Shown piece after piece: positions 2,305 to 21,388 of a stretch of 38,613 nt of DNA (position 1 is its first letter; every line of letters begins with the position of its first letter). The DNA is from Lentilactobacillus kefiri (GTDB taxonomy: Bacteria > Bacillota > Bacilli > Lactobacillales > Lactobacillaceae), in assembly GCF_007989105.1 (NCBI RefSeq), contig NZ_BJVK01000018.1, positions 1 to 38,613 on the forward strand, written 5' to 3'. The translations under genes were made by a program, and so were the position numbers. A model generated the notes under the pieces. The model worked only from the letters and a program-made list of their open reading frames with translations. It ran no database searches and was not told the DNA's origin.

Positions 2305-2334
2305 TCTACATAGACGAATAGGTATTTTGTGAGG

Positions 2335-2365
2335 CGCTTCGTGGATTTCTGCGGGGCGTTTTTTT
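2335..2365 (+). terminator. Terminator of the 68-aa gene
   Basis: Stem CGCTTCGTGG / CTGCGGGGCG (ten pairs, several G-U) with a 4-nt loop and a run of seven T at 2359-2365. Confidence 0.75.
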
Positions 2366-2392: not shown

Positions 2393-2531
2393 AGCACTTA
2401 TTTTATCTTGTGCTCCCTTCTGCTTTTTCCAGTGGACGACGGCCCTGGACCCACTGCTGCACAAGAAAAAGAGTTCGTTAAATCATCTTTGGGATATAGC
2501 ACTTATTTTATTTTCTGCTCCCTTCTGCTTT
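2393..2531. repeat. Diverged tandem duplication of a palindrome-associated unit
   Basis: A 34-nt block beginning AGCACTTATTTTAT and ending TGCTCCCTTCTGCTTT occurs at 2393-2426 and again at 2498-2531, 105 bp apart, differing at a few positions. After each copy come CGACG, a CCC-GG core, then ACTG and CAAGAAAAA, so the whole unit is duplicated and the second copy runs into the palindrome at 2538-2656. The first copy has its own hairpin (TCTTGTGC near 2408 with GCACAAGA near 2459). No coding capacity is evident in this 350-base gap. Confidence 0.7.
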
Positions 2532-2537
2532 CGAAAT

Positions 2538-2656
2538 ACGCTCCGACGACCCAGGGCCCTACTGTACAAGAAAAAACGGACAACGATGAACAGGTTCGTT
2601 CATCATTGTCCGTTTTCCCTTGTACTCCGGGCCCTAACCGGGTCTCGTCGCGCTCT
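2538..2656. repeat. Long palindromic intergenic element (copy A)
   Basis: Nested inverted repeats: CGACGA/TCGTCG, ACCC/GGGT, GGGCCC/GGGCCC, GTACAAG/CTTGTAC, and a core ACGGACAAcGATGAAC / GTTCATCATTGTCCGT flanked by A- and T-runs. The core works as a bidirectional terminator, here between the 68-aa gene (plus) and the 206-aa gene (minus), whose stop codon it overlaps. The outer ends ACGCTCCGACG and CGTCGCGCTCT match those of copies B and C. Confidence 0.8.
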
Positions 2657-3275
2657 ACTTGTTTTTCTCATACATCACATTTTCAAAACGTTTGCGTAAT
2701 TTTTCCGTTAATAAAATAATGTTTTTAGGTGGTCGGTTGACGCTGAAATCGAAGCAGAATCTCAGTGGGACTCCCATATTATAATCTTCTTCATATGCCG
2801 CAATTTTTTCCGGATCAGCATCCAGCTTATAGCCCATCAGTACTTGCATGCCTAGGCGCTTATGTTGATCCCAATTATTCATGTCTCGATGGCTGCTTAA
2901 CAATGTTCCGATCTTAATGCCATCCAACGCTCTGATTAGCGTCTTGGCATTGCTCACCTTATGCTGAGCGCTCAGGAAGACAAAGTATCGACGCATCACT
3001 GGAATGACTGACGTGAAAAAAACATTTGTTGCCGCGATTTTTGCAGGAAATAAATTTAAAATAACTTCTTTGACAGATTTTGCAGAATATTGCCGTGGAC
3101 CTCGTAATTGATACTTATAGGCTAACCCAACAAATGCTTGGGTAATGTAGCCGGCAGCTGCTCTTTCCGGTTTTGTTAACTTTCGAAATGAGCGGGTTGT
3201 TTGAAATCGTCGAAACCACAGACGATTATTTTCGAAATGTTTTTCAGCTTCTACTTCCGAATATTTTTGTTCCAC
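2655..3275 (-). CDS. Conserved-looking protein of unknown function (206 aa)
   Basis: I do not recognise the family. The start is GTG at 3275, with GGAGG seven nt upstream. The product is basic and soluble, without signal peptide or membrane segment. The N-terminal 50 residues are helical and charged (FENNRLWFRRFQTTRSFRKL), a middle hydrophobic stretch reads NVFFTSVIPVMRRYFVFLSA, and the C-terminus has FCFDFSVNRPPKN and ends in a charged helix. It stands alone, separated from the divergent YczE-like gene by 150 bp, and its 3' end runs into palindromic element A, which should terminate it. Confidence 0.75.
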   Translation of the reverse strand: MEQKYSEVEAEKHFENNRLWFRRFQTTRSFRKLTKPERAAAGYITQAFVGLAYKYQLRGPRQYSAKSVKEVILNLFPAKIAATNVFFTSVIPVMRRYFVFLSAQHKVSNAKTLIRALDGIKIGTLLSSHRDMNNWDQHKRLGMQVLMGYKLDADPEKIAAYEEDYNMGVPLRFCFDFSVNRPPKNIILLTEKLRKRFENVMYEKNK

Positions 3276-4994: not shown

Positions 4995-5048
4995 TTCACA
5001 AAATCTTCACAATTTGTTCAACCTTTGGTCATATTCATTCTATATAGT
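4995..5048 (+). promoter_or_regulatory. Response-regulator-type promoter of small RNA 1
   Basis: Half-sites TTCACA (4995), TTCACA (5006), TTCAAC (5017) and GTCATA (5028) are spaced exactly 11 bp. The -10 TATAGT is at 5043-5048, 26 bp after the start of the third half-site. The -35 position (about 5020-5025, AACCTT) has no match to TTGACA, as expected of a promoter that needs an activator. The TTCACA-N5-TTCACA form is that of OmpR/PhoB-family binding sites. Confidence 0.75.
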
Positions 5049-5054
5049 AAGTAT

Positions 5055-5190
5055 ATAAACATAAAGTGATACGTCATTTTATGTAGTAATAAATTAAATC
5101 CCCCTTTAATTTATTACTTTTGTATTCATATTCTTCCCCTAAGAATATAGGTAACTTGAGATAAGACATCCCCGTGTCTTATCTTTTTTG
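5055..5190 (+). ncRNA. Predicted small RNA 1 of a three-gene cluster (about 135 nt)
   Basis: Start predicted seven nt after the -10. Hairpins in order: CATAAAGTGA/TCATTTTATG (5060-5083); a 14-bp AU-rich stem at 5085-5098/5105-5118 with loop UCCCCC; ATATTCTT/AAGAATAT (5128-5148) with loop CCCCU; terminator GATAAGACA/TGTCTTATC (5160-5183) with loop UCCCCG, then six U. Three C-runs (5100-5104, 5136-5139, 5170-5173) are all in loops. No open frame of useful length. The C-run loops suggest pairing to G-rich ribosome binding sites. Expression is inferred, not shown. Confidence 0.75.
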
Positions 5191-5226
5191 TTCCTTATTT
5201 TGTATCACTCCAACAAATTTTGGAAA

Positions 5227-5280
5227 GTCACAAAATCTTCACAATTTATTCACACTTTAGTTAAACATTTGGGGTATCAT
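5227..5280 (+). promoter_or_regulatory. Response-regulator-type promoter of small RNA 2
   Basis: Half-sites GTCACA (5227), TTCACA (5238), TTCACA (5249) and GTTAAA (5260), again in exact 11-bp phase. The -10 TATCAT at 5275-5280 is 26 bp after the third half-site. There is no recognisable -35 hexamer. Confidence 0.75.
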
Positions 5281-5286
5281 TATTTT

Positions 5287-5426
5287 CGAATAGAAAATTC
5301 GATTTGCTATTCACCTCATATTTGTCAGAAATGATAAAATCAATTTTGATTTACCTTATCTCCCCCTCAAAAAAAGATTAAGGTAGTAAAAGCAAGGTAG
5401 TCCCCCTACCTTGCTTTTATTTTCCT
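5287..5426 (+). ncRNA. Predicted small RNA 2 of the cluster (about 138 nt)
   Basis: Alternative 5' hairpins TCGAAT/ATTCGA (5286-5302) or GAATAG/CTATTC. An imperfect hairpin built on GATAA/TTATC (5333-5360) overlaps the next one. A stem at 5352-5360/5376-5385 (one bulge) has a 15-nt loop containing CCCCC (5362-5366). Terminator AAAAGCAAGGTAG/CTACCTTGCTTTT (5388-5418) has loop UCCCC and a U-rich tail. Same promoter type and C-run display as its neighbours, but the stems differ in sequence, so copies have diverged while keeping loops. Confidence 0.72.
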
Positions 5427-5473
5427 CTTTGAGATATCGTTCAATCAAATTGTAGAACAATCTACCGAGTTAA

Positions 5474-5587
5474 AACGTGTTCCGACGATCCAGATGCTAA
5501 CTTCTAAGGCCACCTTGTTCAAAACCAAGTTCAGGTTTTAAACAAGCCGACCTTAGAAACCGCATCTCCCAGATCTCGTCACACTCT
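5474..5587. repeat. Long palindromic intergenic element (copy B)
   Basis: Ends AACGTGTTCCGACG and CTCGTCACACTCT match copy C at 20638-20758. Nested pairs: GACGA/TCGTC, GATGC/GCATC, TTCTAAGG/CCTTAGAA, CTTGTT/AACAAG, AAAACC/GGTTTT. It separates small RNA 2 from the promoter of small RNA 3. It lacks the A/T-flanked core that makes copies A and C look like terminators. Confidence 0.75.
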
Positions 5588-5594
5588 CCAAAAG

Positions 5595-5648
5595 TTCACA
5601 AAATCTTCAAAGTTTCGTCTAAGTTTAGTTAAATTTGTCCTGTATATT
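5595..5648 (+). promoter_or_regulatory. Response-regulator-type promoter of small RNA 3
   Basis: Half-sites TTCACA (5595), TTCAAA (5606), GTCTAA (5617) and GTTAAA (5628) in 11-bp phase. The -10 TATATT at 5643-5648 lies 26 bp after the third half-site, as in the other two promoters. The third half-site is the most diverged. Confidence 0.72.
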
Positions 5649-5654
5649 TAAATC

Positions 5655-5811
5655 ATGAGCAAGAGATAAACGTGATTTATTTCTACTCACCCCCAATAAC
5701 TTTTGGGCGGTAAATTGATCCCCCCATTGATTTACTGTCCGTACATCATATTCATATTCCCCTCAGAATATTGAACTAAAAGACCTGACTCCCCCGTCGG
5801 GTCTTTTTTTC
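5655..5811 (+). ncRNA. Predicted small RNA 3 of the cluster (about 155 nt)
   Basis: The longest member, with four C-runs: 5690-5694, 5720-5725 (six C), 5759-5762, 5791-5795. Structures: AUAAA/UUUAU (5666-5680); CCCAA/TTGGG (5692-5707), which would partly hide the first C-run; GTAAAT/ATTTAC (about 5710-5735) with the six-C run in the loop; TATTC/GAATA (5755-5770) extended by TTCA/TGAA; terminator AAAAGACCTGAC/GTCGGGTCTTTT (5778-5807) with loop UCCCCC and seven T. No SD-led open frame inside. Confidence 0.73.
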
Positions 5812-5876
5812 TATGCTTAACGATTTGTCGATTGGCGTATAATTAATGAATAAGCCATTCGAAAGGAAGCCAACCA

Positions 5877-8665: not shown

Positions 8666-8694
8666 TTGATTAATAGATTGCAACTTGTTATCAT
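8666..8694 (+). promoter_or_regulatory. Predicted purA promoter
   Basis: -35 TTGATT (8666-8671), 17-bp spacer, -10 TATCAT (8689-8694), about 47 bp before the purA ATG. Confidence 0.6.
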
Positions 8695-8741
8695 TAAAAA
8701 TGCTGGGTAGATTCCTGGCAATAAAATTTAGAGGTGTTCAT

Positions 8742-10022
8742 ATGTCATCTATTGTGATTGTTGGAAGTCAATGGGGCGACGAAGGGAAAGGTAAAATCAC
8801 CGATTTATTCGGTCAAAGCGCCGATATTATCGCCCGCTATCAAGGCGGAGATAATGCCGGTCACACCATTGTGTTTAATGGCAACAGCTACCATCTGCAA
8901 CTTATCCCATCAGGAATTTTTGATCAGGAAAAGTACAGTGTTATTGGTAACGGAGTTGTCGTTAACCCCAAATCCTTGATCAACGAAATGGACAATTTGA
9001 AAAAGGATGGGATTAGTACAGATAACTTGAGAATTTCAAACCGTGCTCAAGTCATCATGCCTTACCACATTCTCTTCGATGGTCTGCAGGAACAAAAGAA
9101 AGATTCCAAGATTGGTACAACTAATAAGGGAATCGGACCTGCATACATGGATAAAGTCGAGAGAATTGGAATTCGAATTGCTGATTTACTTGATAAGGAT
9201 ACATTTGAAGAAAAACTTCGAAACAATCTCGCAGTCAAGAATGAGCTACTCACCAAAATCTACGATCATGAACCACTGGAATTCGAACCAATCTTCAATG
9301 AATACAACGAATACGCCGATCGAATCCGTCCTTACGTTGTCGATGCTTCCTATATTATTAACAACGCACTGGATGATCACAAGAACGTCTTATTCGAAGG
9401 TGCTCAAGGTGTGATGCTGGATGTCGACCATGGAACTTATCCATTCGTTACCTCATCCAATCCAAGTGCCGGCGGTGCCGCTGTCGGTACAGGTGTTGGT
9501 CCTAACCGCATTGATCACGTGATCGGTGTCTGCAAGGCCTACACTTCACGAGTTGGTGAAGGTCCCTTCCCTACTGAATTGAAAGACGCCACTGGTGATC
9601 ACATCCGTGAAGTCGGTCATGAATATGGGGTTGTTACCAAGCGTCCTCGCCGAATCGGTTGGTTCGACAGTGTTGTTCTTCGCCACTCAGCCCGTGTCAG
9701 TGGTTACACCCACTTGGCATTGAACTGTCTGGATATTTTAACCGGTATTAAAACTTTAAAAATTTGTGTTGCTTATGAATTAAATGGTAAAAAGATCGAC
9801 CATTACCCTGCAACTTTGAAAGAACTCAATCAATGCAAGCCCGTTTATGACGAGCTGCCAGGCTGGGATGAAGACATCACCAAGTGCAAGACATTTGATG
9901 AATTGCCAGCCAACGCTCAGAACTATTTGAACCATGTCCAAAAAGCAGTCGGTGTTCCTTACGCAACTTTCTCAGTCGGTCCTGACAGAAAACAGACTAA
10001 CGTCGTTGAAAAAGTGTGGTAA
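8742..10022 (+). CDS. purA: Adenylosuccinate synthetase
   Basis: 426 aa. GTP-dependent ligation of aspartate to IMP, the committed step to AMP. The N-terminal P-loop [14 protein letters not shown] at residues 8-21 and the block GDNAGHTIV are diagnostic; RPRRIGWFD near 300 and the C-terminal VGPDRKQT are also typical. The open frame extends 19 codons upstream, but I start at the ATG at 8742 because SD AGAGGTG precedes it and the predicted -10 lies inside the extension. Divergent from purB; guaC follows 181 bp downstream after a long hairpin. Confidence 0.97.
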
Positions 10023-10037
10023 AACCTAGTGAGCGAA

Positions 10038-10135
10038 GCAAAGCGATTAGAAGTCGTGGCATAAGTCTCCTTTAACAGAAATTCCTGCATTTGGAATTTG
10101 TGTTAAAGGTGCTTATGCGCAGACTTCTGCTTTGC
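10038..10135. repeat. Long imperfect palindrome between purA and guaC
   Basis: Nested arms in order: GCAAAGC/GCTTTGC, AGAAGTC/GACTTCT, GCATAAG/CTTATGC, CCTTTAACA/TGTTAAAGG, AAATTCC/GGAATTT. Nearly the whole 98 bp pairs with itself. There is no T-run, so it is not a standard terminator. The ends differ from the CGACG palindrome family. It could uncouple guaC from purA transcription or stabilise purA mRNA. Confidence 0.7.
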
Positions 10136-10203
10136 GGAGCTGTCCTAATGTCGTGAACGGAGTCAGGCAGTTAAAAACTGTCCCAAAACCTCGGAGGTAA
10201 ATC

Positions 10204-11940: not shown

Positions 11941-14523
11941 TTACTTTTTAATTAATCCAATATACTTCCAAGCAATCAGTAAACCAATCAACAAGATTCC
12001 AACTACCGTTAAGGCAATTTCTTGCTTAGCTTTAGCACCAGTTTGTGGCAATTTTCCTTTAGCAGGAGTAACCGTTTGAGGGGTGCTTGCTTGAGGATTG
12101 CTTGCGTGGGTGGTGTTGGCTTGTTGAGTTGTTTTTCCTGACTGGGTAGGAGTCTTCGTAATCTCGCCGCCTTCAGAAGTTGAATGAGTACCAGGTGTTA
12201 TTTTATCAGGTTGTCCTGGAACTTTTGGCGTCTTAGGTGTTACAGGCGTTACTGGTGTATCTGGCGTGTGCGTATTCTTCAAGGTAACCACACCGTCTTT
12301 AACTGACTGCTGGCCAGTCGTAGAGGATGTATACCCATCCGGAATTTTAGTCTCGGCAACAGTGTAGATAATCGGATTACCATCGGCATCAGTTTCTGGT
12401 AAATTGTCAAAGGTTGCCGTGTAATCATTGCTTGAATCAAGTGTTACAACTTGATCCGTTGCCTTGCCATTTGCATACAGGGTTGCTGTAATACTTGGTG
12501 CAACAGTTCCATCTGGAACTCCTGACCATTCCTTGACGACTTTGATTGATGTTTTCTTTGGTACAAACACGTTAACCAAAGTTACAGCCCCATCTTTAAC
12601 GACTTGTTGGCCAGTGGTGGTTGAAGTGTAGCCGTTTACGGCAGTTTCGACAACCGTGTAGGTAATCTTATTACCCTGATCGTCAGTTTCGGGTAAGTTC
12701 TCAAATCGGCCTAAATAACCGTTCGAACTATCCAGTGTGATTGTCTTATCAGTCGGCTTACCATTTGCATACAGGGTAACTGTAATTGATGGCGTGTTCG
12801 TTCCTTTTGGAACCCCCTGCCAAATCTTATTCACAGTTACTGATGTCTTGTTTGGAACATAGTCATTAACAAGGGTAACAACACCGTTCTTTACCGGCTG
12901 CAAACCAGAAGTACTTGTGGTATATCCTGCTGGAACAGATTTCTCAGCGACAGTGTAAACAATTGTCTTTCCATTTTCATCAGTTACTGGTAACCCTGTG
13001 AAATCAGCAGTCCAATTATTTGCGGCATTCAAAGTAACGGTCTTGGTGGTTGCTTTACCATTGGCATACAAGACTGCCTCGATGCTCCGATCTCTGGTAT
13101 CTGAAGTTGGAACACCCTTCCAGATCTTTTTAACAGTGATTTTAGTCTGTTTTGGAATATAGTGGTTAGTCAATGTTACTTTGCCATCAACAACTTTGAT
13201 TTGCCCACTATTATCAGATTTGTAACCACTCACTTGTGATTCAACAACGGTATATTTAATTGTTTGGCCCTTGGAATCGGTCTCAGGTAAGTTTTTAAAT
13301 TCACCTGAGTAACCATTCTGACTATCCAAGGTAAGTTTGTCATTGGTTGACTTGCCGTTGGCATATAAGGTAACAGTTACTGAAGGTGTCTTGACACCAT
13401 CTGGAACTCCTGCCCAATTCTTGTTGACTTTAATGGAAGTCTTATGGGCAACATATTCATTGACCAATTTTACAAGGCCATCTTTATTAGCCTTTTGTTG
13501 GCCAGAAGTGGTTGTTGTATATCCATCTGGCAGAGACTTTTCTGCAACAGTGTACTTGATCTGCTTACCTTGACTGTCTGTTAGAGGCAAATCGGTAAAA
13601 TCAGCCGACCACTTATTGGCATAATTCAAGGTAACGGTTTGTTTAGTTGCTTTACCATTAGCATACAAAACTGCTTGAATAGACAACTTCTTCCTATCTA
13701 CACCTTTAGGTATGCCTTTCCACGTTTTCTTAACGGTAATCTTGGTCTGCTTCGGAATGTATTGGTTAGTCAATTTCACCTTACCATTCACAACTTTTAC
13801 TTGACCATTCTTGGTGGTATCATTTGTGAGTTTATATCCATCAACTGTTGATTCAGAAACGGTATAGTCAATTGTTTTGCCGTTATCATCGGTTTCAGGA
13901 AAATTATCAAATCTAGTGGAATAACCATTCTGGCTATTCAAGGTTTTATCATCGATCTTCTTACCGTTTGCATATAAATTAACGGTGATTGATGGCGTTT
14001 TGACGTTGTCAGGAACTCCCTGCCAGTCCTTATTGACCGAAACGGAGGTCTTATGGGCAGTGTATTCATTAACTAAGTTTACAACGCCATTTTTATCAGG
14101 CGATTGTTTGTCTGTGGTAGATGTATACCCTGTTGGAATCGATTTTTCAGATACAGAATATTTAATTGTTCTTCCTTGATCATCAACTTGAGGTAAATTA
14201 GAGAACGCTCCAGCATAGCCATTTGCCTTAGTCAGTTCAATTGTTTTCCCAGTTGGTGTTGTGACTTCTTTACCATTTTCCGTAACTGTCTGATATAAGA
14301 CTGCGGTTATTGATGGCGTGGTGATCTTGTCAGGAACACCTTTCCAAGTTTTCACAACTTTAATTGTCTCTGGAACAAACTGGTTCGTAAATGTAACTGA
14401 ACCATTGGCCGGTGCCTGGTCACTGTCAGTAGATTTATATCCAGGAACCGTTGGTTCTTTAACTGTGTATTTAATTGTATTTCCAGAATCATCTTTTACT
14501 GGCAGATCTGTAAATTGAGCAGC
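11941..14523 (-). pseudogene. C-terminal part of LPXTG adhesin: CnaB repeats and sortase signal
   Basis: Continues in the same frame past a TAG at 14524-14526. It holds the rest of CnaB repeat 2 (AAQFTDLP onward) and seven further repeats, each about 95-100 aa with a Lys in VNKxW or VKKxW and a Glu in YTVxE, the residues that form the intramolecular isopeptide bond in this fold. Repeats alternate between two subtypes (opening KTSVxVNK and KQTKITVKK), which suggests pairwise duplication. After the repeats come a Pro/Thr-rich stretch (VTPVTPKTPKVPG), then LPQTG, a hydrophobic segment and the tail YIGLIKK: a complete sortase A signal. No further stop occurs in 860 codons. The first internal Met-led frame starts at 14355 but has no signal peptide, so on its own it would be cytoplasmic. 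Confidence 0.88.
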
Positions 14524-16023
14524 CTATCCGTTACTCGTATTAAGCTGACGAGTCTGACCCGTTGAAGTTGTGGTATCATTTACGGTTTTATACAAGGTTG
14601 CTGTAACTGGAGGCGTGTTGACTCCTTTAGGAACGTCCTTCCAGACCTTGTTAACCTTGATTGAAGTCTTTGCCGGAGCATAGGTATTAGTAATTGTCAC
14701 ATCGTCAGTTTTATCATCAAGCGATTGTGAACTTGTAGTGGCAGTGTAATTGGAGACTGGATCTTCTACAACAGAATACTCAATTTTCTTCTTATTTGAA
14801 TCCAGTGTCCAAAGATCCGTGAACGTTCCCTTCCAATCGGGTGCGGTCAATGTAAGTGATTTCCCAGTTGAAACCGGCTTTGAATCTCCATCATGTTTTG
14901 CGTATAATGTTACCTTTATACTGTCTGGCAGTTTAACATCATCGGGCTTACCCACCCATTTTTTCGTGACATTAATACTAAACTTTGTACCATAACCTTC
15001 TCCATGACCACCAATTGTAAATGTTCCTTGGGTAGTCTTGTTGATAACAACAGATTTACCATCACCACCAGTTCCATCATTTGGAATATTTCCAGTCAGG
15101 TCCATATTATTCTGAAGTGATATTCCAGACCCACTTTGCAGGTATCCCTGATCAGTGATCTTAGTGAGATATTTGATATTGATTGCTTTGTTTAACGTAC
15201 CATTCCACTGAATGGAAAACTTAGCGGGGTCACTAGCCGAATATAAAATTGTGTAATCCGAATCAGGGATAACGTTATTATCGTCATCTGTAATTTGGAT
15301 AATCGGTTTTGATGTTATAGGATCCAATACAATTTTTTGTTTGTCAGTGTTTAACAATGTGTCATTAATCAGCAAATTATTCATTTGAAATTTTCCATCA
15401 TTAACACGCGCATCCCACATAACATATTGATTTCGCTTATCACTGGTTTGTGGATAATTCACATTTTTGAAATCCCCGCTGAAAGACCAGCCATTCTTAC
15501 CAATGTATGGGTTAGACTTAGAATCATCTTTGGATCCATTAACTTCAAATGTCAGTGTTCCGCCACGACCGTTCACATGTTCACTATAATAACCATTGAA
15601 AGTAATTGTACCGGTCTTGGATCCGCTGTCAGGAGTGAATCTTCCAATAACAGTACCATTGTTATCAAATATATCGAACGGTTGTGCATCATGAAGTGTA
15701 ATTCCAGCAGGTAAAGTGACTTTTGCAGTATCGCCATTCTTTACAACAGTCCCATCCGGGATTGTGTATTTATATCTTAATTTGTAGTTAGTGTACTTCT
15801 GCCAATTGTCGGTTACCGACGAATCAGCTTTTATCCAATCGGTACTTCCGTCTTTTTGATAGTAGGCGTCATTGCCTCCTAAGCCTGTTACACTGGTGCT
15901 TATGTCAGCCGCCTTTACACTATGAGTCTGAGATCCAACACCAATAAATATTGAAACTATGAACAAGAAAATACCGAGCCATTTCCAAATACTTCTTGAA
16001 CTGAACTTAATTTTTTCGTTCAC
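14524..16023 (-). pseudogene. N-terminal part of LPXTG adhesin: signal peptide, adhesion domains, first CnaB repeats
   Basis: Starts at GTG 16023 (SD GGAGGGG, 8 nt). A long signal peptide of about 38 residues ends in THSVKAA. Residues 40 to about 345 are a beta-rich region with DTAKVTLPAGI and GTITFNGYY, the layout of collagen-binding-type N1/N2 adhesion domains. A first CnaB repeat (VTKKWVGKPDDV) and most of a second (VNKVWKDVPKGV) follow. Translation ends in repeat 2 at TAG, in SNG*AAQFTDLP. Sister repeats have NGY at this place, so TAT or TAC probably became TAG by one substitution. Unless the stop is read through, this piece lacks the wall anchor and would be secreted. Confidence 0.88.
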
Positions 16024-20637: not shown

Positions 20638-20758
20638 AACGTGCTCCGACGGCACTGATCCCTGCACCTAACCAAAAAAAACGGCTCAAGGAATGAAAAC
20701 ATTCCTCAAGCCGTTTTTCCGGTTAGGCTACGGGATCACCCGTGCCTAGTCGCACTCT
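20638..20758. repeat. Long palindromic intergenic element (copy C)
   Basis: The best-preserved copy. Ends AACGTGCTCCGACG and GTCGCACTCT. Nested arms: GGCAC/GTGCC, GATCC/GGATC, CCTAACC/GGTTAGG, and core ACGGCT-AGGAATG/CATTCCT-AGCCGT flanked by eight A and five T. On the minus strand the core plus T-run makes a strong terminator for the LysM-protein gene, which ends 7 bp away. A piece resembling the core of copy A (ACGGACAA...CATCATTG...CCGTT) lies just outside at 20590-20620. Confidence 0.85.
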
Positions 20759-20764
20759 AAATCT

Positions 20765-21388
20765 TTAATTTAATGCCCAAGCACCCATACCTTGTGAATG
20801 GTAGAGACGTGCTGCGTCATTTACTTGTTCGCGCCAGTCATTACTTGTAGTGTAAAGTGATTGGTACAAACCATGAGCAGTTGAGCTAGGGTTTTGTGCA
20901 GTTGGGTTGTTTCTTGATTCACGGTAACTGATAGCCATCCAAGTTGATGCTGAAACACCAGTCTTTTGTTCCATCAATTGTGCAGCTTGTTGAGCAACTG
21001 AACCACTAGTAGCAGTTGTAGTTGATGCTTGGCTGCTTTGAGTAGTAGCTTGAGTTGATTGAGTTGACTGTGTTGGTTGGCTGTAACTCTGAGTCTGTTG
21101 AGCAGTTGTGGTTGCGGCTGCTACATGCGCACTACCTTGAGTATTTGATGAGCTGTTAGCTGAAGGAATAGTTAATTGTTGTCCTACAGTGATAACATTT
21201 GCATCCTGAAGATTGTTGGCACTCTCGATAGCCTTAACTGAGGAATTGTATTGTTGTGAGATTCCCCAAACGGTGTCGCCTGACTTAACTGTAACTATTG
21301 TGCTAGCTGAAGCATATGCGGATCCTGCGAAGAATAAACCAATAGCTGCGGCTGAAGTTGCGAAGATCATAGATAATACTTTTTTCAA
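20765..21388 (-). CDS. Secreted LysM protein with lysozyme-like C-terminus
   Basis: 207 aa. Signal peptide at 1-28 (FATSAAAIGLFFAGSAYASA), one LysM peptidoglycan-binding domain at about 30-75 (VTVKSGDTVWGISQQYNSS...VGQQLTIP), a Gln/Ser/Thr-rich linker, then a C-terminal domain with WMAISYRESRNNPTAQNPSSTAHGLYQ, which resembles the transglycosylase/aggregation-promoting-factor type seen in lactobacilli; the Glu in YRES would be catalytic. TTG start at 21388 with AGGAGTG about 9 nt upstream. Monocistronic; palindromic element C provides the terminator. The linker is codon-repetitive, so its length may vary between strains. Confidence 0.88.
   Translation of the reverse strand: MKKVLSMIFATSAAAIGLFFAGSAYASASTIVTVKSGDTVWGISQQYNSSVKAIESANNLQDANVITVGQQLTIPSANSSSNTQGSAHVAAATTTAQQTQSYSQPTQSTQSTQATTQSSQASTTTATSGSVAQQAAQLMEQKTGVSASTWMAISYRESRNNPTAQNPSSTAHGLYQSLYTTSNDWREQVNDAARLYHSQGMGAWALN

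What the first reader, a model, noticed from the sequence alone, without database searches (positions are those of the whole stretch)
2393..2531. Tandem 105-bp duplication next to palindrome copy A
Two copies of a 34-nt block (AGCACTTATTTTAT...TGCTCCCTTCTGCTTT) each lead into a CGACG-CCC-GG-ACTG-CAAGAAAAA stretch, so an incomplete element sits in tandem with a complete one. This may be a trace of how the palindromes multiply.
Basis: seen in the sequence. Interest (0 to 1): 0.35.

Follow-up and report, generated by a model that had tools for sequence, protein, structure and literature searches.

The report
Truncated copy beside stop-codon hairpin repeat
Next to a gene's stop codon sits a long RNA-like hairpin repeat with a second, cut-down copy behind it; the repeat belongs to a large and apparently unnamed family found at the ends of genes in lactobacilli and some relatives, so the tandem itself is ordinary but the family is interesting.

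Summary
In detail: 34-nt blocks at 2393-2426 and 2498-2531 are 32/34 identical, 105 nt apart, each followed by a partial match. The true reading direction is the minus strand. There, a 122-nt imperfect palindrome (2656-2535) begins inside the TAG stop codon of ORF 3275-2655. Its tail (2531-2498) follows, then a non-matching 27-nt spacer, then a 5'-truncated second unit, 3' arm plus tail (2470-2393). It is a head with a repeated 3' half, not a 105-bp duplication.

The element is a dispersed family: at least 42 places in this genome (my count), 16 of 24 genus genomes (Lentilactobacillus), 64 of 301 family genomes. Of 46 model pairs, 29 show compensatory changes (shuffle mean 16). In 52 of 86 best-scoring Lentilactobacillus copies it starts within -3..+12 nt of a codirectional ORF's stop codon, against 1 of 86 antisense and about 1.5% at random.

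Extra 3' halves recur (12 of 86 copies read), suggesting local array growth, not dispersal. Best reading: a mobile-looking 3'-UTR hairpin, terminator-like in the window copy. Nearest known kinds: EFAR, SPRITE, ERIC.

The parts
2655..3275 (-). 206-aa ORF whose stop codon (TAG, 2657-2655) overlaps the first two bases (AG) of the element
   Evidence: matches in 21 of 24 genus genomes
2535..2656 (-). Complete element head: 122-nt imperfect palindrome, copy A
   Evidence: R1 133.7 bits (this copy is one of the 22 that R1 was built from); 286-nt region around it folds with z -7.7
2573..2616 (-). Inner hairpin plus T-run, intrinsic-terminator-like (20 pairs)
   Evidence: 2 such sites found in 2250-2720, 0.7 expected from shuffles
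2498..2531 (-). Tail of the complete element (first 34-nt block in element order)
2471..2497 (-). 27-nt spacer, not similar between units (7 of 27 matches)
2393..2470 (-). Second, 5'-truncated unit: 3' arm (2470-2427) plus tail block (2426-2393)
2331..2362 (+). Terminator-like site on the other strand, downstream of the convergent gene
5474..5587 (-). Element copy B (different inner sequence, same fold); no codirectional ORF end of at least 80 aa beside it
   Evidence: R1 68.3 bits; fold z -8.8
10028..10145 (+). Element copy D, 5 nt after the stop of ORF 8685-10022(+)
   Evidence: R1 45.5 bits
20638..20758 (-). Element copy C, 6 nt after the stop of ORF 20765-21388(-)
   Evidence: R1 84.2 bits

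Best explanation
SHOWN: the finding is the 3' end of a dispersed, structured repeat. A complete 122-nt imperfect palindrome starts inside the stop codon of the upstream ORF, in the sense orientation, and is followed by a tail. A second unit that keeps only the 3' arm and tail then follows. The family is widespread in Lentilactobacillus and occurs in other Lactobacillaceae genera and a few genomes of other families of the order. Its stems are kept by compensatory changes on the strand that is sense to the upstream gene. In Lentilactobacillus it prefers the first nucleotides after stop codons. INFERRED: the window copy acts as the transcription terminator, and perhaps mRNA 3'-end cap, of the upstream gene. 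The truncated unit arose locally, by slippage or unequal recombination at the hairpin, or by loss of the 5' arm from a once complete tandem copy. It is not a step in spreading to new sites, which seems to involve whole units joined as T|AG...; the enzyme responsible is unknown.
For: Structure: 29 of 46 pairs show two-sided changes in 22 copies, shuffle mean 16.1 with 0 of 500 reaching it; covariation score 0.489 against 0.06-0.09 for slid structures (the structure was derived from these sequences, which favours it). In 114 distinct heads aligned to the model: 4560 Watson-Crick, 381 G-U, 31 A-C, 123 other cells. Distribution. Stop-codon abutment among the best-scoring copies: 20/30 own, 16/30 G006, 16/26 other Lentilactobacillus, 9/30 other genera; antisense 1, 0, 0, 0; random 1.4-1.7%. 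Terminator: the inner hairpin plus T-run is the only minus-strand terminator-like site in 2250-2720. At the same gene's stop, 9 of 20 genomes read (G000 included) lack the element and 8 of those 9 show, by eye, a plain terminator hairpin. Terminator-like motif in 66 of 114 heads against 5.2 from mononucleotide shuffles. Local tandem: tail identity 94% within the window locus against a 75% mean between loci; an extra 3' half behind a single 5' arm in 12 of 86 copies on reading, with repeated spacers in L034, L061 and L149.
Against: 48 of 114 heads lack a terminator-like motif, the B subtype has it in only 2 of 17, and 40 of 114 carry one on the antisense strand. In the own genome 10 of 30 copies have none either inside or within 250 nt downstream. 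If transcription stopped at the inner T-run, the conserved outer 3' arm would not be transcribed, so termination alone does not explain the outer covariation. G-U preference does not separate RNA from single-stranded DNA folding. None of the 10 G273 copies listed abuts a stop codon, so the stop-codon rule is not family-wide; copy B in the window also has no ORF end beside it. The window spacer is not repeated, so the duplication step is not seen directly. No close strain pair was available.
Confidence: 0.6

Rival explanations
1. The truncated unit is the remnant of a second complete element inserted in tandem, whose 5' arm was later deleted.
For: Tandems with two or more 5' arms within 700 nt were flagged in 14 of 86 copies by pattern; model R1 confirms complete second copies in, for example, L064, L065, L066, L136 and L140. 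In L064 the joints read GGCT|AGAGTG and GGCT|AGGTAGC. L006 and L010 keep the whole inner hairpin but lack the 5' arm, a graded loss.
Against: The two tails in the window are more alike than the window's first tail is to that of any other locus examined, so a remnant of an independent insertion would need later homogenisation.
Confidence: 0.25
2. 3'-anchored, 5'-truncated copies made by reverse transcription, as in eukaryotic retroelements.
For: Extra units keep the 3' tail and lose variable lengths of the 5' side. RVT_1 genes exist in 8 of 24 genus genomes, some of them carriers.
Against: No RVT_1 match in the own genome nor in the element-rich G006, G005, G008, G034 and G035.
Confidence: 0.04
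3. REP/RAYT-like or IS630-like transposition produces the tandem as well as the dispersal.
For: Hairpin-rich element, T|A(G) target-like junctions. Y1_Tnp genes exist in 7 of 24 genus genomes, including carriers G005 and G016.
Against: No Y1_Tnp match in G000, G006, G008, G034 or G035. No IS630 DDE_3 match over the cut-off in any of 24 genomes (one weak match, in G031). Other transposase families were not searched.
Confidence: 0.08
4. Chance similarity of two unrelated terminators.
For: Only 3 of the middle 24 nt match without gaps.
Against: 32/34 identity; score 63 against a shuffle maximum of 29; the same arrangement recurs at other loci.
Confidence: 0.01

Closest known systems
EFAR / Efa elements of enterococci (De Gregorio et al. 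2009, FEMS Microbiol Lett 292:7; Efa in PMC1590033)
   Same: Repeats of a Lactobacillales genus, larger than REPs, spanning stem-loops and preferentially close to the 3' ends of genes (Efa: passages of PMC1590033). [quoted passage not shown]
   Different: Sequence homology not tested: the 2009 paper is not held and no Enterococcus genome could be picked out by name. That EFAR lie at stop codons, may act as terminators and are modular is my recollection only.
SPRITE and BOX elements of Streptococcus pneumoniae (PMC3049150, passages read)
   Same: SPRITE: terminator-like repeats enriched close to the 3' termini of genes. BOX: modular, with a middle module that is absent, single or repeated.
   Different: Here the repeated module is the 3' half, the palindrome has conserved interior bulges, and placement in Lentilactobacillus is nearly base-exact at the stop codon. 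No sequence comparison was made.
ERIC (enterobacteria)
   Same: Imperfect palindrome of similar length (127 bp and the TA target are recalled), co-transcribed with flanking genes and folding as RNA hairpins (passages of PMC1590033 and PMC10969869).
   Different: Different taxa, no sequence relation looked for; strong stop-codon, sense-strand bias here.
GTAG/CGTC-tagged REPs (PMC3733652, passages read)
   Same: Palindromic, extragenic, often in groups; CGTC REPs lack a dedicated transposase according to the paper.
   Different: REPs are 20-40 bp there, and the words Lactobacill, Lactobacillales and Firmicutes do not occur in that paper's main text; here most heads are 113-129 nt.

Membership tests
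MITE (non-autonomous DNA transposon) | Short, dispersed, non-coding, palindromic | tested here: met
MITE (non-autonomous DNA transposon) | Target-site duplication at clean empty sites | tested here: inconclusive
   T|AG / CT|AR junctions in nested and occupied-versus-empty comparisons; flanks too diverged to prove a duplication, and the base before the element is not always T
MITE (non-autonomous DNA transposon) | Related autonomous element or transposase | tested here: inconclusive
   Y1_Tnp and DDE_3 absent from the own genome; other families not searched
REP/REPIN | RAYT (Y1 tyrosine transposase) in the genome | tested here: not met
   0 matches in the own genome and in G006, G008, G034, G035; 7 of 24 genus genomes, including G005 and G016, have some
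Intrinsic (Rho-independent) terminator | GC-containing hairpin followed by a U-tract, downstream of a gene in sense | tested here: met
   window copy; only 66 of 114 heads overall:
Intrinsic (Rho-independent) terminator | RNA 3' ends at the site | not testable with these tools
   no transcript data
EFAR (enterococcal repeats) | Sequence consensus of EFAR | not tested
   paper not held; no named Enterococcus genome searched
Rfam families | Score above the family's gathering threshold | tested here: not met
   0 in the whole window; six matches in 2380-2720 at E up to 1, all microRNA families far below their gathering scores
Retroelement with 5' truncation | Reverse transcriptase in the genome | tested here: not met
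   none in the own genome

The most novel reading that the evidence does not exclude
A Lactobacillales-wide family of mobile RNA-folding elements that, in Lentilactobacillus and some relatives, inserts into or just behind stop codons in the sense direction, often supplying the AG of the new TAG stop and replacing the native terminator. It switches subtype at fixed sites and grows 3'-half arrays locally, without a reverse transcriptase, RAYT or IS630 enzyme in the genome.
Probability: 0.3. Interest if true: 0.75.

Novelty: new variant of a known kind. Interest (0 to 1): 0.5.

Why it matters
The tandem itself is a minor detail. The family behind it would mean that Lentilactobacillus and some relatives use a common, fast-evolving repeat as the 3' end of many genes, placed almost to the base at the stop codon. 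That raises testable questions: how it finds stop codons, whether it terminates transcription or protects mRNA, and how copies at the same gene become unlike between species while keeping their position. Matches also lie on plasmids of food bacteria; in the four records opened they sit beside a corA-type gene.

Tried and rejected
Reverse-transcriptase origin of the truncated copies: not supported, no RVT_1 in the own genome. RAYT mobilisation: not supported for the own genome. IS630, suggested by TA-like junctions: no match over the cut-off. Known RNA family: none in Rfam. Phage origin: no match in phage records, none in viral contigs for one exact pattern. Prior description in lactobacilli: ten paper searches listed nothing that by title or start of abstract describes it; the library lacks most subscription journals, so this is weak. 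Pattern counts of arms and tails are rough: ten loci were flagged with more 3' than 5' arms, but on reading L055 and L138 hold complete second copies with a diverged 5' arm, and the flag missed L032, L048 (the window), L139 and L149, which have two tails behind one 5' arm. Of 13 loci with at most one 5' arm and two or more 3' arms or tails, 12 remain after dropping L055. Identical tails were counted once. 'Best paralog closer than ortholog' (7 of 7) was not used as proof because it compares the best of 29 with one; the fair statement is that seven orthologous elements average about 0.71 identity against 0.64 for random pairs, while their flanks are 76-93% identical. I could not identify the species of the window.

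Full report
OBSERVATION. The 34-nt block is present at 2393-2426 and 2498-2531, 32/34 identical and 105 nt apart. A second shared stretch lies at 2454-2470 and 2559-2575. Together the 78-nt units align with a local score of 63 against a maximum of 29 in 5000 shuffles, but the 24 nt between block and stretch match only with gaps, and the 27 nt separating the units do not match (7 of 27). The wording '105-bp duplication' is therefore too strong; a unit of about 78 nt is repeated at 105-nt spacing. The block occurs nowhere else in the window (up to 10 substitutions, both strands).

READING DIRECTION. On the minus strand the order is: ORF 3275-2655 (206 aa), whose TAG stop codon shares its AG with the start of the element; a palindrome of 122 nt (2656-2535); the tail block (2531-2498); a spacer; a second unit with only the 3' arm and tail (2470-2393). 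The region folds far better than shuffles (z -7.7), and its inner hairpin with a T-run is the only minus-strand terminator-like site in 2250-2720; the scan found 2 sites on both strands against 0.7 expected. Three further copies lie in the window: 5474-5587(-), 10028-10145(+) and 20638-20758(-). The last two follow the stop codon of a codirectional ORF by 5 and 6 nt; the first has no such ORF.

FAMILY. A covariance model (R1) was built from 22 heads; 29 of its 46 pairs have changes on both sides. In a control 16.1 pairs are reached on average in 500 shuffles and none reaches 29; sliding the partners gives 7-9. R1 matches 16 of 24 genomes of the genus, 64 of 301 genomes drawn from the family (16 of 40 genera) and 22 of 395 drawn from the order (10 of 80 genera); the last two used stricter filters that lose weak matches. 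In the own genome it lists 58 matches, which I count as 42 distinct places after removing 16 opposite-strand echoes; copies B and D of the window are missing from that list, so it is a lower bound. A degenerate head pattern in genome contigs hits named Lentilactobacillus species (parakefiri, sunkii, otakiensis, parabuchneri, rapi, parafarraginis, kisonensis) in 25 of 28 stretches; the other three are single hits in metagenome genomes of unrelated phyla, presumably chance. Of ten stretches taken from more distant genomes, eight (L230-L237, from six genomes outside the family) hold the element with much the same fold, although the minimum-energy fold of L234 has other outer stems; L238 is from a genome of the family, and L239 is a weak match whose fold differs. 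In L230 the element again completes a TAG stop.

STRAND AND STRUCTURE. On 114 distinct heads aligned to the model (149 matches less opposite-strand echoes and identical rows), 4560 cells are Watson-Crick, 381 G-U, 31 A-C, 123 other and 149 gapped. The alignment is fitted to the model, which favours it, but the G-U excess indicates that the strand sense to the upstream gene is the one that folds, as RNA or as single-stranded DNA.

STOP CODONS. For the best-scoring copies of each genome (not all copies), the element starts within -3..+12 nt of the stop codon of a codirectional ORF of at least 100 aa in 20 of 30 (own), 16 of 30 (G006), 16 of 26 (other Lentilactobacillus) and 9 of 30 (G076, G213, G273). 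By my reading the last group splits into 5 of 10, 4 of 10 and 0 of 10, so the rule fails in G273. In the antisense orientation the counts are 1, 0, 0 and 0; random intergenic positions give 1.4-1.7%. Several of the misses at 118-135 nt are second copies in a tandem. The commonest distance is -2, where T of the gene and AG of the element make TAG. ORFs were called by a simple longest-ORF rule, not by a gene finder.

SAME SITE IN RELATIVES. The gene upstream of the finding has matches in 21 of 24 genus genomes, and I read the downstream region in 20, the own genome included (the weak G009 match was left out). By eye, the R1-type element follows the stop directly in 6 (G000, G035, G006, G008, G005, G034), a diverged palindrome of the same build in 4 (G004, G015, G016, G010), and a degenerate one in G013. 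Nine lack it (G031, G018, G003, G011, G012, G007, G014, G002, G033), and 8 of those nine (not G033) show a plain terminator hairpin at that spot. Extra 3' halves are visible behind the head in G000, G005, G006, G008, G034, G035 and G015, each with its own sequence; the one in G035 is degenerate. Against twenty 20-kb stretches of G006, 17 first copies of the own genome could be placed: 13 stops are occupied in both (by eye), 4 are empty in G006. Two of these four (L032, L062) have a scanned plain terminator within 160 nt and two (L071, L075) do not; for L075 the empty site of L. otakiensis shows one by eye. In seven occupied pairs where both elements were R1 matches, the elements are poorly alike (0.57-0.84, mean about 0.71, against 0.64 for random pairs) although flanks are 76-93% identical: position is kept while sequence turns over.

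THE TANDEM. Among 86 copies examined by pattern (58 loci of the first set and 28 of G006), 14 were flagged with two or more 5' arms. Thirteen have at most one 5' arm but two or more 3' arms or tails; on reading, one of them (L055) is a complete second copy with a diverged 5' arm, which leaves 12 with an extra 3' half, the window included. In the window the two tails are 94% alike; 21 distinct tails of different loci average 75% (sd 8), the highest between-locus pair being 94% (L038-L061), and the window's first tail reaches at most 88% with any other locus. Within-locus pairs elsewhere: L034 97%, L061 94%, L149 94%, L150 70-85%. In L034, L061 and L149 the spacer is repeated along with the 3' half, as straightforward tandem duplication would give; in the window it is not, so there the step itself is not visible. 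Whole units also sit next to each other: in L064 the joints read GGCT|AGAGTG and GGCT|AGGTAGC. Graded loss of the 5' side (L006 and L010 keep the inner hairpin, L002 and the window lose more) fits either history.

FUNCTION. A terminator role is best supported for copies like the one in the window. Of 114 heads, 66 carry a sense terminator-like motif, 40 an antisense one, with 5.2 expected from mononucleotide shuffles; but only 2 of 17 of the B subtype do. In the own genome 11 of 30 copies have such a motif only inside the element, 5 inside and downstream, 4 only downstream and 10 neither. A terminator that stops at the inner T-run cannot by itself explain covariation of the outer stem, so either longer transcripts or DNA-level folding must also matter.

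MOBILITY. The own genome has no RVT_1, Y1_Tnp or DDE_3 match; RVT_1 occurs in 8 and Y1_Tnp in 7 of 24 genus genomes. Element matches lie on 119 plasmid records of lactic acid bacteria, 43 of them with one place covering at least 80% of the query, the rest partial. In the four records I opened the match lies beside a corA-type gene. The upstream flank in L132 and L133 matches, by eye, a G006 flank (L047) that also has a convergent 303-aa ORF, which suggests hitch-hiking of that locus. No phage record matched, nor any viral contig for one exact pattern.

COMPARISON. The closest published kinds are EFAR/Efa of enterococci, SPRITE and BOX of pneumococcus, ERIC, and tagged REPs (passages read; the EFAR paper itself was not held). 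Membership in EFAR was not tested. I file the family as a new variant of a known kind, 3'-end palindromic repeats, and the tandem as an ordinary by-product of it.

Noticed in passing
window 5041-5195, about 5280-5430, 5640-5815 (+): Three tandem small-RNA-like units with hairpins whose loops are runs of C and a terminal hairpin plus T-run (first and third folded: z -8.8 and -6.1), each preceded by a variant of a TTCACAAAATCTTCACA block, resembling direct-repeat regulator boxes. Any pairing with ribosome-binding sites is a guess.
   Followed up: partly
L132, L133, L134, L135 (plasmids): Matches to the element sit beside a corA-type gene on plasmids of Lactiplantibacillus, Levilactobacillus, Lactococcus and Weissella; in two of them the upstream flank matches, by eye, a Lentilactobacillus chromosomal flank.
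   Followed up: partly
L047, L049, L079, L132, flanks just upstream of the element: A tiny possible ORF (12 codons in L047 and L132, ending ...DWVKKW) stops just before the element; L049 and L079 have a similar ending.
   Followed up: no
L032, L034, L038, L068, L070, L072, L078, L137, L139, L158: A roughly 36-nt cassette (CCAAGTAGGCTAGGC...GCCGGCCGTCGG), flanked by repeated GTCG, is found inside arms of the element or its extra units; flagged by pattern in 10 of 86 copies.
   Followed up: partly
L238 (G120) about 971-1338: Three complete elements in 125-bp tandem with the same score, and the start of a fourth: whole-unit amplification in another genus of the family.
   Followed up: no
window 12314-14643: Long internal repeats, many spaced about 590-610 nt, largely inside the 804-aa ORF 11941-14355(-); probably a repeat-bearing surface protein (the name is a guess).
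   Followed up: no
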